Below are positions 53,846-61,588 of a DNA stretch of 61,588 bases, piece after piece. The stretch spans positions 1 to 61,588 of the forward strand of contig NZ_JAPCID010000049.1 in the NCBI RefSeq assembly GCF_027587175.1, written 5' to 3'. Positions within the stretch are counted from its first letter, which is position 1; the number at the start of each line of letters is the position of its first letter. Source of the DNA: Solirubrobacter deserti. Lineage in GTDB: Bacteria > Actinomycetota > Thermoleophilia > Solirubrobacterales > Solirubrobacteraceae. The notes under the pieces were generated by a model. The model was not told where the DNA came from. It ran no database searches and was given only the letters and a program-made list of their open reading frames with translations. The position numbers and the translations under genes were made by a program.

Positions 53846-53851
53846 ACGCTA
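53846..53851 (-). promoter_or_regulatory. Putative -10 of the methyltransferase gene, overlapping the luxR-type stop
   Basis: Minus-strand TAGCGT, 6 nt, ATG (53839). Its TAG is the stop codon of the upstream LuxR-family gene. Confidence 0.55.
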
Positions 53852-56629
53852 GATCTGCGGTTGCGGCGCTCGCATCGGGAGGGGGTCCTGGTCCTGGGTC
53901 AGGACCCGCGCCAGCGCGGTGCGCGAGTCGATCGCGAGCTTGCGGTAGACGCTCTGCAGGTGGTGGTCGACGGTCTTGGGCGAGAGGAACAGCTTGCCCG
54001 CGGCCTCGCGGATCGTGTGGCCCTCGGCGAGGATCAGCGCGACCTGCAGCTCGCGCGGGGTGAGCGCGTCGAGCGTGAGCGGGGTCCGACGGCGGGCGGT
54101 CTCGCCGCTGGCCTGCAGCTCCCGGCGGGCGCGCTCCGCCCAGGGGACCGCGCCGAGCGCGTCGAAGGCGGCGATCGCGGCGCGGAGCGGCTCGCGAGCC
54201 TGGCTGCGCCGCTTGGCGCGCCGCAGCGCCTCACCCTGGGCGAGCAGGGTGCGGGCGGTCTCGAAGCGATCCGGCGTGTGGGCGTGCAGGGCAAGCGCGG
54301 CGTCGTAGTCGCCGCGCGCGCGGGCGAGGCGGGCGAGCGACCAGGGCTGGCCCTTGGCCTGCGCCGCGGCGGCGAACGCGTCCAGCGGCGTCTCCGGCAC
54401 GAGCCCGGCGAGCTCGGGCGCGGGTGAGACGTCGGGGTCGGCGATGCCGCGGTCGTCGAGCAGGTGCTGCTTGGCGGTGAGGTGGGTGATCGCGGCGTCG
54501 AGGTTGCCGCGGCCGAGCTCGAGCTCCGCGTGCGCGTCCAGCGCCCACAGCTCGAAGAACGCGAGCCCGCGCTGCCGGGCGAGCTGCAGGGCCTCGGCGG
54601 CGTGCGGGGTCTCGCGCCCCTGGCGGGCCTCGACGCACGCGAGGCCGGCGAGCGCCGCGCACAGGTTCGTGGCCTGGCCGGTCTCGCGCGCGAGCCGGAT
54701 CGCCTCCTCATAGAGCGCGACCGCGACGTGCGGGCGGTCCGACGTGGCCGCGTCCCGCGCGGCGAGCCACAGCGGAAGCGGCAGCTCGCCGACCGCGCCC
54801 TGGCGGCGGGCGGTCTCAGTCGCGCGCTGGATGAGCTCCCGCCCGCGCTCGGCTTCTCTGAGCCACAGCGCGCCGGTCGCGGCCGCCGCGAGCAGCGCCG
54901 GGTCCGAGGAGTCGTCCAGCAGCGCGGTCGCCTCCCGCAGCAGCGGGACGCCCGCGTCGTCGCCGTTGTAGATGAGCGCCATGCCGAGCGCGAGCGTCGC
55001 CCGGACCCGCGTGCGGACGGGCGCCGCGGGCGTGAGCGCCGCCCACGCCGCGCGGGCGGTCGCGAGCATGCGCGCGGGATCGGCGGCGCAGATCGCGGCG
55101 TCGGTGGCCTGCGCGAGCATCTCGGCCGCGCGCTCGGGCGGCGCCTCGCGCGCGGCCGCGACGAGCACGTTGTGGGCCAGCTGCACGTGCCCGCCGTGCA
55201 GGGCCGCGTGGCCGCGCAGATGGTCGATCTCGACTCGCAGCGGCGGGTCGGTGCACAGCTCCCGCGCCTCGGCCAGACGCTCGTCGGCGCGCTCGGCGTG
55301 CCCGGCGAGCCACGCGGCCTCCGCCGCGTGGAAGAGCCGCTGCGCCCGGCGGGGCTGGTCGGCCGTGAGCCGCGCGGCCCGCTCGAGCGAGCTCGCCGCG
55401 GCCGTGTACGCGCCCCGGCCTCGGGCGCGCAGCCCGGCCCGCTCGAGTTCCTCCGCCACCCCGTCGTCCGGCCCGAGCGCCGCCGCCGCTCGATGCCACG
55501 CCCGCCGGTCCGGGTCCGGCTCCACCCGCGCGAGGGCGGCGTGCGCGGTTCGCCGCTCGTCCGGCGCGGCGCACCGGTACGCCGCCGAGCGCGCAAGGGG
55601 ATGGCAGAAGCGGACGCGATCGAGCGCGAGGGTGATGAGGCCGGCCCGCTCGGCGGCGGCGAGCGGCGCGAGGACCGCGGCGGCGCCGCCGGCCGCGCCG
55701 CTCGTGCCGGCTGGGCCGCTCGTGCCGGTCGGGCCGGTCGGGCCGTTCGTGCCGCTCGTGCCGGTCGGGCCGCTGCCGCCGGCCGCGCCGCTCACGCCTG
55801 GCGCCGCCATATCTCTTGCGGCGGCCGCGATCACGCCCAGATCTCCCTCCTCGTCGGCGGCCGCCAGCGCGAGCAGGCGCCGGGCCGGCTCCGGCAAGCC
55901 CCGCACGCGCGCGGCGAAGGTCTCCTCGACGCTCGTGCGCACGGGCACGGCCGGTTCCAGCGCAAGCCCGGCGGCGGACGCGGCCAGCTCGACCAGCGCG
56001 AGTGGGTTGCCGAGGGTCGCCTCGAAGGCGCGGTCGGCGGCGCCCGGGGGCAGCGGGCGGCCCGCGTGGCGCTCGAGCAGCGCGGCGGCGGTCGCGCGGT
56101 CCAGGCCGGACAGCGACAGCTCGGGCAGGTCGAGGCGGACGCGGCTCGCGACCAGGATCGCGAGCGCGTCGGCGAGCAGGCGGCGGGCCGCGAACAGGAT
56201 CGCGGCCAGGGAGGACGCGTCGAGCCACTGGGCGTCGTCGATCACGACGAGCACCGGCGCCTGCTCCGCGCACGCGGTCAGGAGCGTCAGGGTCGCGGCG
56301 CCGATCAGGAAGCGGTCTCCGGCCGCGCCCTCGGCGAGCCCGAGCGCCGCGCGCAACGCGGCGGCCTGGGGCGCCGGCAGGGTGTCCACGCGGTCGAGCA
56401 CGGGCCGCAGCAGCGAAAGCAGGCCGGCGAACGGGATCTCGGACTCGGACTCGACGCCGGTCGCGCGCAGGACGGTCATCCCGGACGCGCTCGACAGCGC
56501 GTACTCGAGCAGCGCGGTCTTGCCGATGCCCGCTTCGCCGGTGATCGTCAACGCCTCGCTGGTGCCGAGGCGCGCGTTGGCGAGCAGCCGGTCGATGCGG
56601 GCCAGCTCTTCGGCGCGGCCGATCACCAT
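53849..56629 (-). CDS. LAL-type LuxR regulator (AAA ATPase plus TPR-like array) with Gly-X-Y insert
   Basis: A 926-residue large ATP-binding LuxR-family regulator. N-terminal AAA/STAND ATPase with Walker A GEAGIGKTALLE and Walker B VLVVIDDAQWLD; then helical-repeat (TPR-like) sequence with Leu/Arg-rich AARLTADQPRRAQRLFHAAEAAWLAGH-type units; and a C-terminal LuxR HTH (LTPRELQVALILAEGHTIREAAGKLFLSPKTVDHHLQSVYRKL). A collagen-like run of about 13 Gly-X-Y triplets (residues about 278-316) sits just after the ATPase. Such regulators often control secondary-metabolite clusters; here the methyltransferase and hydrolase-glycosyltransferase are the obvious targets. Confidence 0.9.
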   Translation of the reverse strand: MVIGRAEELARIDRLLANARLGTSEALTITGEAGIGKTALLEYALSSASGMTVLRATGVESESEIPFAGLLSLLRPVLDRVDTLPAPQAAALRAALGLAEGAAGDRFLIGAATLTLLTACAEQAPVLVVIDDAQWLDASSLAAILFAARRLLADALAILVASRVRLDLPELSLSGLDRATAAALLERHAGRPLPPGAADRAFEATLGNPLALVELAASAAGLALEPAVPVRTSVEETFAARVRGLPEPARRLLALAAADEEGDLGVIAAAARDMAAPGVSGAAGGSGPTGTSGTNGPTGPTGTSGPAGTSGAAGGAAAVLAPLAAAERAGLITLALDRVRFCHPLARSAAYRCAAPDERRTAHAALARVEPDPDRRAWHRAAAALGPDDGVAEELERAGLRARGRGAYTAAASSLERAARLTADQPRRAQRLFHAAEAAWLAGHAERADERLAEARELCTDPPLRVEIDHLRGHAALHGGHVQLAHNVLVAAAREAPPERAAEMLAQATDAAICAADPARMLATARAAWAALTPAAPVRTRVRATLALGMALIYNGDDAGVPLLREATALLDDSSDPALLAAAATGALWLREAERGRELIQRATETARRQGAVGELPLPLWLAARDAATSDRPHVAVALYEEAIRLARETGQATNLCAALAGLACVEARQGRETPHAAEALQLARQRGLAFFELWALDAHAELELGRGNLDAAITHLTAKQHLLDDRGIADPDVSPAPELAGLVPETPLDAFAAAAQAKGQPWSLARLARARGDYDAALALHAHTPDRFETARTLLAQGEALRRAKRRSQAREPLRAAIAAFDALGAVPWAERARRELQASGETARRRTPLTLDALTPRELQVALILAEGHTIREAAGKLFLSPKTVDHHLQSVYRKLAIDSRTALARVLTQDQDPLPMRAPQPQI
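55682..55798 (-). repeat. GC-rich repeat encoding 13 Gly-X-Y triplets
   Basis: A tandem 9-bp-type repeat within the LuxR gene, coding for GPTGTSGTNGPTGPTGTS-like collagen triplets. Near-identical units suggest slippage expansion and possible length variation between strains. Confidence 0.75.
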
Positions 56630-58817: not shown

Positions 58818-59399
58818 GTGGCCGAGGAAGCGCACGGACAAGTCGTCGAGCCGAGCGAACGGCTCGATCCCGAGACGCGCGCCCGCCGCGAGGCCGCGCT
58901 CAAGCTCGTCCGCAAGTACGGCGACCCGGTGCTCCGCTCACGCGCGCTGGAGATCAACCACTTCGACGAGGCGCTGCGCGAGGAGGTCCGTCGCATGGGC
59001 CGCCTGATGCACGACGCCTACGGCATCGGGCTCGCCGCCACGCAGGTCGGCAAGATGCACCGCCTGCTGGTCTACCGGACCGAGCTCGAGGGCTCGATCG
59101 CCGCGCTCGTCAACCCGGTGCTGGAGTGGGCGAGCAAGGACAAGGAGACCTCCGAGGAGGGCTGTCTGTCGCTGCCCGGCGTCGCCGTAGAGGTCGAGCG
59201 CCCCGTGCACGTCCGCGTCTCCGCGCTCGACGAGTACGGCAAGCCGATCCTCATCGAGGCCTCGGGCCTGGAGGCGCGGGTCATCCAGCACGAGATGGAC
59301 CACCTGGACGGCGTCCTCATCCTGGACCGCGCCTCGCGCGACCAGCGCAAGCAGGCGATGAAGACGCTCCGCGAGCAGCTCGAGCCTCAGACAGCTTGA
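58818..59399 (+). CDS. def: Peptide deformylase
   Basis: Removes the formyl group from nascent N-terminal Met. The 193-residue metalloenzyme shows the three motifs: GIGLAATQV, EEGCLSLPG (metal Cys) and QHEMDHLDGVL (metal His pair and Glu). The N-terminus has an extra 28-residue charged stretch before LVRKYGDPVLRS. It overlaps fmt by TTGA, the usual partner that adds formyl groups to the initiator tRNA. Confidence 0.97.
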   Translation: MAEEAHGQVVEPSERLDPETRARREAALKLVRKYGDPVLRSRALEINHFDEALREEVRRMGRLMHDAYGIGLAATQVGKMHRLLVYRTELEGSIAALVNPVLEWASKDKETSEEGCLSLPGVAVEVERPVHVRVSALDEYGKPILIEASGLEARVIQHEMDHLDGVLILDRASRDQRKQAMKTLREQLEPQTA

Positions 59400-61030
59400 G
59401 AAACGTCTACCTCGGCACCTCCGAGTTCGCGGCCGTCGTGCTGCGCGCGCTGGCTGCGAGCGACCATCGCCCGCAGCTGGTCGTCACACGCCCGGACGCC
59501 AAGCAGGGGCGCGGCCAGAAGCTCGCCCCGCCGCCGGTCGCGGTGCTCGCGGCCGAGCTCGGCATCCCGTTCATCCAGCCCGCCGACCTGCACGCGCCGG
59601 AGACGCTGCAGGCGATCGCGGAAGTCCAGCCCGAGGTGCTCACCACCTGCGCCTACGGCGTGCTGATCAAAGAGCCGCTGCTCAGCGACTACGAGATGAT
59701 CAACGTGCACCCGTCGCTGCTGCCGCGCTGGCGCGGGGCGGCGCCGATCGAGCGCTCGATCATGGCCGGCGACGCCGAGACCGGCGTGGCGATCATGCGC
59801 GTCACCGCCGGCTGGGACTCGGGGCCCGTCTACGCGTTGGGGCGCGAGCCGATCCGGGAGGACGACGACTACGGCACGCTCGTCCCGCGCCTGGAGGAGC
59901 TCGGCGCGCGCCTGCTGGTGCAGGTCCTCGACGAGCGTCCCCAGCCGGTCGAGCAGGACGAGTCCGGCGTCACCTACGCGAACAAGATCGGCGCGCGCGA
60001 GCGCGCGCTGGACCCGACGCAGACGCCGGAGGAAGTCGAGCGCACGATCCGCGCGCTGCGCCCGCACATCGGGTCCCGCCTGCCGCTGCCCGACGGCACG
60101 TTCCTGGGCGTGACCGCGGCGCGCGTCGACGGGCCGACCCGGGCGCCCGCCGGCGGCCTCGTCCGCACCGACGGCCTGCGCCTGCTGCTCGACTGCCACG
60201 GCGGCGCGCTCGAGATCCTCGAGGTCAGGCCGCCCGGCGGCAAGGTCATGCCCGCCGCCGACTGGCTGCGCGGCCAGCGCGACGCCATGCTCACGAACTT
60301 CCGCTTCGACCCCGCGCTGCCCGACCGCGGCCTGGACGAGATCCTCGAGACCGCCCAGCGCGAATGGCGCGACCCCGACGACGAGTGGCAGCCGCACGTG
60401 TGCGCGCTCGCCGCGCGTGGGGACGCGGAGACGCTCGCCGCGCTCGAGCCGCTCGCCCGCTCCGACAAGCCCGAGCTGCGCGAGCTCGCCGCCTACGTGG
60501 TCGGCCAGCTCGGCACGACCACGCCCGCGCTTCCGGCCGAGCAGGAGGCCGCGCTGCGCAGCATGGCCGAGCGCGAGCAGGACCCGACGGTGCTCGCGGC
60601 GATCATCTGCGCCTTCGGCCACATGGGCGCGCCGGCCGGGCACGACTGGCTGCTCGCGCAGCGCGGCCACGCGGACGTCTCTGTCCGCGAGGCCGTGGCG
60701 TTCGCGCTCGGCGGGCGACCGGGGGAGGACACCCTGGCCGCGCTGATCGAGCTGTCCGCGGACGAGGACGCGAAGGTGCGCGACTGGGCGACGTTCGCGC
60801 TCGGGACGCTGGCCCCATCGGACGGGGATGAGTTGCGGGACGCGCTGGCCGCGCGGCTGGACGATCCGGACGAGGACACGCGGATGGAAGCCGTGCACGG
60901 GCTCGCGCTGCGGGGGGATGCGCGTGCGGCTGAGCCTGCGCGCGAGCTGCTCGCCGGGCGGGATGCCTCGGACGACGGCGTGTGGCGGCGCCATTTGTTG
61001 GCGGAGACACGCGAGAGTCTGGACTCGTAG
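59396..61030 (+). CDS. fmt: Methionyl-tRNA formyltransferase fused to HEAT repeats
   Basis: A 544-residue protein. Residues about 1-300 are a complete Fmt: YLGTSEFAAVVLRAL, VVTRPDAKQGRGQKL, the catalytic Asn-His-Asp set in CAYGVLI, INVHPSLLPRWRGAAPIERSI and WDSGPVYALG, and the C-terminal OB-like domain ending RPPGGKVMPAADWLRGQR. The remaining 245 residues form a HEAT-repeat array (AALEPLARSDKPELRELAAYVVGQLG, VLAAIICAFGHMG, VSVREAVAFALGG, KVRDWATFALGTLA, TRMEAVHGLALRGD). HEAT proteins like this are usually separate genes. An in-frame ATG at 60287 could also yield the HEAT part alone. TTG start overlaps the def stop (TTGA). Confidence 0.88.
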   Translation: MRNVYLGTSEFAAVVLRALAASDHRPQLVVTRPDAKQGRGQKLAPPPVAVLAAELGIPFIQPADLHAPETLQAIAEVQPEVLTTCAYGVLIKEPLLSDYEMINVHPSLLPRWRGAAPIERSIMAGDAETGVAIMRVTAGWDSGPVYALGREPIREDDDYGTLVPRLEELGARLLVQVLDERPQPVEQDESGVTYANKIGARERALDPTQTPEEVERTIRALRPHIGSRLPLPDGTFLGVTAARVDGPTRAPAGGLVRTDGLRLLLDCHGGALEILEVRPPGGKVMPAADWLRGQRDAMLTNFRFDPALPDRGLDEILETAQREWRDPDDEWQPHVCALAARGDAETLAALEPLARSDKPELRELAAYVVGQLGTTTPALPAEQEAALRSMAEREQDPTVLAAIICAFGHMGAPAGHDWLLAQRGHADVSVREAVAFALGGRPGEDTLAALIELSADEDAKVRDWATFALGTLAPSDGDELRDALAARLDDPDEDTRMEAVHGLALRGDARAAEPARELLAGRDASDDGVWRRHLLAETRESLDS

Positions 61031-61448: not shown

Positions 61449-61588
61449 CTACCAGGCCGGCGTCGCGGCCGGATCGGCGGCCGGCTCGGCCACCGCGGGC
61501 TGCTCGGCCTGGACCGCGGCCGGAGTCGGCTCGGCGGGGGCGGGCGTCTCGACCGGCGGGGCGGCCGCCTCGACCGGCGCGGCCGCCG
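61449..61588 (-). CDS. 3' end of a protein with an Ala/Pro/Glu-rich tail (partial)
   Basis: The last 46 codons of a gene running off the right edge. The visible part is a low-complexity Ala/Pro/Glu/Val tail (PVETPAPAEPTPAA and EPAADPAATPAW), a composition seen in extended C-termini of ribosomal or cell-envelope proteins of actinobacteria. Nothing more specific can be said. The stop is followed by a strong hairpin. Confidence 0.6.
   Translation of the reverse strand, partial: AAAPVEAAAPPVETPAPAEPTPAAVQAEQPAVAEPAADPAATPAW

What the first reader, a model, noticed from the sequence alone, without database searches (positions are those of the whole stretch)
59396..61030. Methionyl-tRNA formyltransferase fused to a HEAT-repeat array
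An intact Fmt (about 300 aa) continues in frame into about 245 residues of HEAT repeats, with no stop or frameshift between. HEAT arrays are scaffolds; fusing one to the initiator-tRNA formylating enzyme, directly coupled to def, could tether formylation to ribosomes or another partner. An internal ATG at 60287 may also give the HEAT part alone. I do not know of a described Fmt-HEAT protein.
Basis: partly seen in the sequence, partly recalled or inferred. Interest (0 to 1): 0.7.

Follow-up and report, generated by a model that had tools for sequence, protein, structure and literature searches.

The report
Initiator-tRNA formylating enzyme with HEAT arm
In the soil bacterium Solirubrobacter, the enzyme that formylates the initiator tRNA has been joined to a complete HEAT-repeat protein, a real gene fusion kept across the genus whose binding partner is still unknown.

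Summary
Window 59396-61030 is one 544-aa reading frame: an apparently intact methionyl-tRNA formyltransferase (Fmt, residues 1-298), a ~14-residue linker, and a HEAT-repeat domain (313-544). It is not a sequencing error: the same stop-free frame is in 7 of 7 Solirubrobacter genomes held (6 species, 70-100% identical). The six species align without a gap to residue 519, and all parts show dN/dS below 1. No fusion was seen outside the genus in order, family, class and phylum searches. Unfused relatives end Fmt near residue 295; in 15 of 24 loci an rsmB match starts within 100 nt.

The HEAT part matches a whole stand-alone actinobacterial HEAT protein (YibA/PRK09687-like) and keeps that group's signature residues. 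AlphaFold gives two well-folded domains. HEAT is strongly acidic (net -25), so a protein partner is likelier than direct RNA binding. The internal ATG at 60287 is in 1 of 6 species. Ribosome tethering is untested. I judge it a new domain architecture of a known enzyme; the HEAT part's function is inferred.

The parts
58818..59399 (+). def, peptide deformylase (193 aa), upstream and overlapping the fusion gene by 4 nt
   Evidence: Pep_deformylase PF01327, 152.8 bits; TTGA overlap
59396..61030 (+). fmt::HEAT fusion gene, TTG start, TAG stop, 544 aa
   Evidence: same stop-free frame in 7 of 7 genomes of the genus
59411..59929 (+). Formyl transferase N-terminal (catalytic) domain, residues 6-178
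   Evidence: PF00551 110.8 bits; N103, H105 and D141 invariant in a 19-row alignment and matched in E. coli Fmt 1fmt; their catalytic role is recalled
59987..60277 (+). Formyl transferase C-terminal domain, residues 198-294
   Evidence: PF02911 38.3 bits; model residues 1-305 align to 2fmt at Z 35.8, 302 residues, rmsd 1.9
60290..60331 (+). linker, residues 299-312, about 14 aa, same length in all six species
   Evidence: gap-free six-species alignment; dN/dS of residues 299-330 below 1 in 15 of 15 pairs; lowest pLDDT block 301-310 (63 and 67)
60332..61027 (+). HEAT-repeat domain, residues 313-544, 14 predicted helices; corresponds to a whole stand-alone HEAT protein
   Evidence: HEAT_2/HEAT; helices; alignment with stand-alone relatives from near their N-terminus; signature residues shared
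60248..60250 (+). only in-frame start codon in residues 271-345 shared by all six species (M285, inside Fmt); no Shine-Dalgarno match upstream
   Evidence: M285 is also invariant in unfused Fmts, so its conservation is explained by Fmt
   Evidence: present in 1 of 6 species, no Shine-Dalgarno match

Best explanation
In the ancestor of Solirubrobacter a complete gene for a YibA/PRK09687-like HEAT-repeat protein came to lie just after fmt, where rsmB often starts in relatives, and fused in frame to it; the stretch between became a short linker. The genus has since kept this Fmt as a two-part protein. Shown: the fusion, its conservation, its restriction to the genus in what was searched, its selection, and its place in the priA-def-fmt-rsmB neighbourhood. 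Inferred: the Fmt part formylates Met-tRNA(fMet) as usual. Inferred: the HEAT part is an acidic protein-binding arm that kept the binding face of its stand-alone ancestors and holds a partner protein next to the formylating enzyme, which localises or tunes formylation. The partner is not known.
For: Stop-free frame in 7 of 7 genus genomes, 6 species. Six-species alignment gap-free to residue 519. dN/dS in the four closer species (6 pairs): Fmt N 0.12-0.21, linker 0.10-0.40, HEAT 0.17-0.25. In the 6 genus genomes whose further matches were listed, none is a second Fmt: they are HEAT paralogues or weak short formyltransferase matches. Fmt motifs intact. HEAT aligns over the length of stand-alone proteins. 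Of 36 positions invariant in 6 of 6 fused rows and kept in at least 6 of 7 stand-alone rows, examples are R462-D-W-A-T466, H425, R431, E498, R506, D508, R510. Fused rows form one clade, support 100/100. AlphaFold pLDDT 90.8 and 90.6, pTM 0.69 and 0.74. HEAT net charge -25. rsmB match within 100 nt of the fmt stop in 15 of 24 unfused loci, 1.6-2.4 kb away in 5 of 5 fused loci with enough flank. One lead towards translation: the closest stand-alone relative (G012) lies 1.9 kb upstream of thrS and infC on the same strand.
Against: No partner, binding or activity was tested. The G012 lead is a single case with an opposite-strand aminotransferase gene between; no translation gene was recognised beside the stand-alone HEAT genes of G595, G598, G540, G001 and G003, mostly by eye. 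HEAT evolves faster than Fmt (mean identity 0.73 against 0.85 for Fmt N), and in the 9 pairs with G005 or G002 HEAT dN/dS is 0.36-0.69 (Fmt N 0.27-0.45); third positions are 0.95-0.96 GC (G001, G002), so the ratios are rough. Two further unfused genomes (G073, G080) also have 1.6 and 2.7 kb between fmt and rsmB, so a changed fmt-rsmB interval is not peculiar to the fusion. Domain placement rests on pTM alone; no coordinates were inspected.
Confidence: 0.5

Rival explanations
1. Passive fusion: the HEAT protein keeps an independent job (for example immunity or another protein-binding role) and merely shares the polypeptide and expression of a housekeeping enzyme.
For: Most stand-alone relatives looked at have no recognised translation neighbour; the best stand-alone match outside the order (G595) lies in a gene array with two T6SS_Tdi1_C immunity-type proteins; the solved relative YibA is reported to neutralise RhsA (passage in PMC3150448); HEAT signature kept.
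Against: The linker is fixed in length and under selection; 21 positions are invariant in the fused rows and absent from all 7 stand-alone rows compared, a few of them in poorly aligned columns; the neighbours priA, def, a TSP3-repeat protein and rsmB are no toxins by Pfam, though no systematic toxin search was made.
Confidence: 0.27
2. Built-in regulator: the acidic HEAT arm folds against the basic tRNA channel of Fmt and gates formylation until a partner pulls it away.
For: HEAT net charge -25, pI 4.4; HEAT is attached at the end of the Fmt C-terminal domain, which in 2fmt lies by the tRNA (recalled); pTM 0.74 hints at a preferred arrangement; fused-only invariant residues such as W324, Y367, W418.
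Against: The 7 stand-alone rows compared are acidic too (net -11 to -35), so acidity looks inherited rather than adapted; no coordinates were inspected; no activity data.
Confidence: 0.12
3. Two products: a second HEAT polypeptide starts inside the gene or is cut off.
For: One in-frame ATG (M285) is shared by 6 of 6 species.
Against: The true TTG start also lacks a clear Shine-Dalgarno match, so the missing motif is weak evidence.
Confidence: 0.08
4. Artefact: two genes joined by a sequencing error.
For: None found.
Against: Same frame in 7 assemblies of 6 species; 0 of 1635 nt differ from the CPCC 204708 record, whose upstream 4 kb differs at 182 ungapped positions, so it is a separate sequence.
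Confidence: 0.01

Closest known systems
Methionyl-tRNA formyltransferase (Fmt, TIGR00460; E. coli 1fmt/2fmt)
   Same: Residues 1-298 align with residues 4-307 of the E. coli enzyme (198 bits); same fold (2fmt Z 35.8); next to def.
   Different: Ordinary Fmt ends about here; this one continues for about 245 residues of linker and HEAT repeats.
Stand-alone actinobacterial HEAT-repeat proteins (YibA/PRK09687-like)
   Same: The seven compared are 35-44% identical by tblastn, line up over the same extent, share the R-[DN]-W-A signature and are acidic.
   Different: Those are separate genes in other neighbourhoods; here the protein is the C-terminal half of Fmt.
E. coli YibA (1oyz), HEAT protein
   Same: Sequence match, E 3e-11 over 87 residues; the fused HEAT part matches the NCBIfam model PRK09687 below its cut-off. 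That this model stands for YibA is recalled.
   Different: YibA is a separate protein beside rhsA and reported to neutralise it (PMC3150448 passage); no toxin partner is known here.
ArnA (formyltransferase fused to a dehydrogenase; function recalled)
   Same: An Fmt-like domain with a second domain at its C-terminus (fold match Z about 31).
   Different: ArnA acts on a nucleotide sugar and its second domain is an enzyme; here the enzyme is a true Fmt by TIGR00460 and the second domain is a repeat array.

Membership tests
Methionyl-tRNA formyltransferase | Score above the TIGR00460 equivalog cut-off | tested here: met
   201.8 against 201.5 bits, only just above
Methionyl-tRNA formyltransferase | Both Formyl_trans_N and Formyl_trans_C domains | tested here: met
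Methionyl-tRNA formyltransferase | Catalytic Asn-His-Asp set (role recalled) | tested here: met
   N103, H105, D141 invariant in 19 rows and aligned with the same residues of 1fmt
Methionyl-tRNA formyltransferase | Formylates Met-tRNA(fMet) | not testable with these tools
   needs an assay; the only other match in the genome is 34% over 82 residues
HEAT repeat (PF13646/PF02985) | Score above Pfam cut-off and helical repeat | tested here: met
   69.1 and 38.9 bits; all-helical model of residues 313-544
NCBIfam NF007244 / PRK09687 | Score above the equivalog cut-off of 275 bits | tested here: not met
   115 bits for the whole protein, 118 for the HEAT part: a relative, not a member
PBS lyase HEAT (PF03130) | Score above Pfam cut-off of 20.9 bits | tested here: not met
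   10.8 bits
HEAT immunity protein (Imm-HEAT) | Toxin gene alongside | tested here: inconclusive
   Pfam names the neighbours priA, def, a TSP3-repeat protein and rsmB; no systematic toxin search

The most novel reading that the evidence does not exclude
Solirubrobacter carries a built-in control arm on initiator-tRNA formylation: the acidic HEAT domain gates or relocates Fmt in answer to a protein partner, so that the amount or place of formyl-Met initiation is regulated by protein-protein contact.
Probability: 0.15. Interest if true: 0.68.

Novelty: new variant of a known kind. Interest (0 to 1): 0.42.

Why it matters
Fmt is a small enzyme found in nearly all bacteria (recalled), and in the searches made here no other genus of the order showed this second domain. 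A genus that carries it joined to a protein-binding repeat array is a natural experiment. Finding what the HEAT arm holds would either name a physical partner of the formylation step, which is hard to find when contacts are transient, or show how a housekeeping enzyme can carry an unrelated passenger domain through the divergence of a genus.

Tried and rejected
Sequencing error or readthrough: rejected, 7 assemblies agree. Internal start at 60287: rejected as a conserved feature. Origin from a neighbouring HEAT gene: none of the 24 unfused Fmt loci L008-L031 has a HEAT match at E 1e-6 within its flanks of up to 1.5 kb. Origin by duplication of the stand-alone paralogue of the genus (G001, G003): not resolved; the fused set is one clade but its sister is unclear, 10 of 14 inner branches open. 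Rosetta-stone link of stand-alone HEAT genes to translation: six neighbourhoods looked at; only G012 has translation genes near (thrS and infC, 1.9 kb away, an aminotransferase gene between), the other five none that I recognised. Genes were called there by a simple GC-based script that can mistake frames, and many were named by eye. Anti-phage defence models: three weak partial matches of P0001 to HEAT-bearing models, E 1.1e-6 to 6.7e-3. Fold search: the Fmt domain filled the listed rows, so the HEAT part was compared with solved structures by sequence only. Other paper searches gave listings without an Fmt-HEAT protein by title or abstract start. Plasmid collection: 0 of 288 matching records covered 80% of the protein.

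Mishaps: the L003 row was read on the wrong strand; redone. Alignments A1 and A2 placed the stand-alone HEAT rows against the Fmt part; the first AlphaFold run used A2 with five such rows, so it was repeated with A3 without them.

Rows dropped before counts: for the tree, 3 of the 14 stand-alone rows (G568, G342, G398; partial or distant) were left out. For one search, 7 of those 14 were used, those most like the fused set, which favours finding shared residues. In one search the list of places was cut by the tool, so absence of fusion in the weakest-scoring genomes rests on the HEAT-only searches. Not every HEAT match was given a locus; only fetched loci were checked for Fmt.

Full report
What is there. 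The stretch 59396-61030 on the plus strand is one reading frame of 544 codons from TTG to TAG. Pfam finds Formyl_trans_N at residues 6-178, Formyl_trans_C at 198-294, and HEAT_2 and HEAT repeats, above curated cut-offs; HEAT_EZ and HEAT_PBS are below theirs. The NCBIfam PRK09687 match spans residues 332-517, well below its cut-off. The NCBIfam model for Fmt is passed by a hair (201.8 against 201.5). Upstream, def ends in a TGA that overlaps the TTG by four bases in 5 of 6 species; in G002 there are 38 nt between them.

Whose genome. The window is contig 69 of a 7.1-Mb genome in 129 contigs. A record of Solirubrobacter sp. CPCC 204708 carries the identical 1635-nt gene (0 differences); its upstream 4 kb differs at 182 positions in an ungapped comparison. 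Four other species are named by their records: S. phytolaccae, S. soli, S. taibaiensis and Candidatus S. pratensis.

Is the fusion real. In 7 of 7 genomes of the genus the frame runs through both parts without a stop, at 70-100% identity. The six species align without any gap to residue 519. Counting changes by the Nei-Gojobori method, the four closer species (6 pairs) give dN/dS 0.12-0.21 for the Fmt N part, 0.10-0.40 for residues 299-330 and 0.17-0.25 for HEAT. The 9 pairs with G005 or G002 give 0.27-0.45 for Fmt N and 0.36-0.69 for HEAT. The HEAT part therefore evolves faster but is constrained. Third positions are 0.95-0.96 GC in G001 and G002, so synonymous distances are rough.

How far it spreads. 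Of 232 genomes of the order searched with the whole protein, 225 have a match. Among the listed places only the seven of the genus run through HEAT; no other listed row goes beyond residue 301 without passing a stop codon (the list was cut by the tool). In the smaller search of 61 genomes one row (G053) reached residue 405, but through two stops. Searches with HEAT alone examined 146 genomes of the family, 396 of the phylum and 399 of the class, overlapping sets, with matches in 16, 46 and 25. Of the 64 HEAT loci fetched, 7 have an Fmt match in the flanks, and all 7 are Solirubrobacter (three loci were short). A pattern scan of the 84,980 species genomes of genome contigs returned 6 loci: 5 are Solirubrobacter and one is a 45-residue match in an alphaproteobacterial contig; that scan reaches close relatives only. 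Other phyla were not searched with a sensitive method.

Where it came from. Of 24 unfused loci, the rsmB match starts within 100 nt of the fmt stop in 15, lies farther in 2, and was not seen within the flank in 7; two further unfused genomes, G073 and G080, have 1.6 and 2.7 kb between the genes. In Solirubrobacter rsmB is 1.6-2.4 kb away in 5 of 5 genomes with enough flank, and an opposite-strand gene for a proline-rich protein with a TSP3 repeat lies between. The HEAT part lines up with stand-alone proteins from near their N-terminus, including the first conserved W and R (W331, R341). So the fusion holds what looks like a complete HEAT protein. The fused rows are one clade with full support; which stand-alone protein is closest is not resolved. 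G001 and G003 carry a separate paralogue elsewhere.

What the two halves look like. AlphaFold models have mean pLDDT 90.8 and 90.6 with the weakest block in the linker. Residues 1-305 match the E. coli Fmt-tRNA complex 2fmt at Z 35.8 over 302 residues. pTM is 0.69 with an alignment in which five HEAT rows were misplaced, and 0.74 with a clean one. This suggests, but does not show, a preferred arrangement of the two domains. N103, H105 and D141 are invariant in 19 aligned sequences.

How it may work. HEAT carries a net charge of -25, so direct binding to tRNA or rRNA is unlikely. Thirty-six positions are invariant in the six fused rows and shared by at least 6 of 7 stand-alone relatives, among them R462-D463-W464-A465-T466; twenty-one are invariant in the fused rows but absent from all seven. 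I read the first group as a retained face for a partner or as fold, and the second as adaptation to the new setting; both are inference. E. coli YibA, one of the solved relatives by sequence, is said in a passage of PMC3150448 to neutralise the growth inhibition by RhsA. PMC3482391 passages list HEAT repeats among immunity proteins, and PMC13392607 passages describe a HEAT-like immunity protein bound to its toxin. So HEAT proteins of this broad type bind proteins. The closest stand-alone relative, in G012, lies on the strand of thrS and infC, 1.9 kb upstream of thrS with an aminotransferase gene on the other strand between; this is a lead towards translation, but a single one. My preferred reading is a protein-binding arm on an active Fmt.

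What is known. A full-text search for 'methionyl-tRNA formyltransferase' with 'HEAT repeat' found 0 papers; 'formyltransferase', 'HEAT-repeat' and 'fused' found one, on E. coli promoters by its title (listing only). 'Solirubrobacter' with 'formyltransferase' found two papers on soil metagenomes (listing only). The library lacks most subscription papers, so this is not proof that the fusion is undescribed.

Noticed in passing
window 61449-61588 (cut by the contig end); L064:5412-6689 (-): Opposite-strand gene between fmt::HEAT and rsmB in 5 of 5 genus genomes with enough flank: a hydrophobic stretch near the N-terminus, a TSP3_bac repeat, a long proline-alanine tail and a conserved end DPAATPAW.
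   Followed up: partly
window 55679-55798, inside the gene 53849-56629 (-), residues 278-317: A LuxR-family AAA ATPase regulator (AAA_16 and GerE) holds a Gly-X-Y insert that matches the Collagen model weakly (20.8 bits, below cut-off).
   Followed up: partly
L072:3870-5390 and L073:5138-6764: The stand-alone HEAT paralogue in two Solirubrobacter species lies tail to tail, 4-6 nt apart, with a gene for a putative neutral zinc metallopeptidase (Pfam Zn_peptidase for L072; L073 by eye).
   Followed up: partly
L071:1-6075: The closest stand-alone HEAT relative (G012) lies on the same strand as thrS and infC, 1.9 kb upstream of thrS, with an aminotransferase class-V gene on the other strand between.
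   Followed up: partly
L104:1333-7142: In genome G595 the stand-alone HEAT gene lies in an array of small genes with two near-identical T6SS_Tdi1_C immunity-type proteins, as in a polyimmunity locus.
   Followed up: partly
G152:C1:4375394-4376016 (L047, L057): A stand-alone HEAT gene of a related genus appears as two pieces, one with a TAG inside, a possible pseudogene.
   Followed up: no
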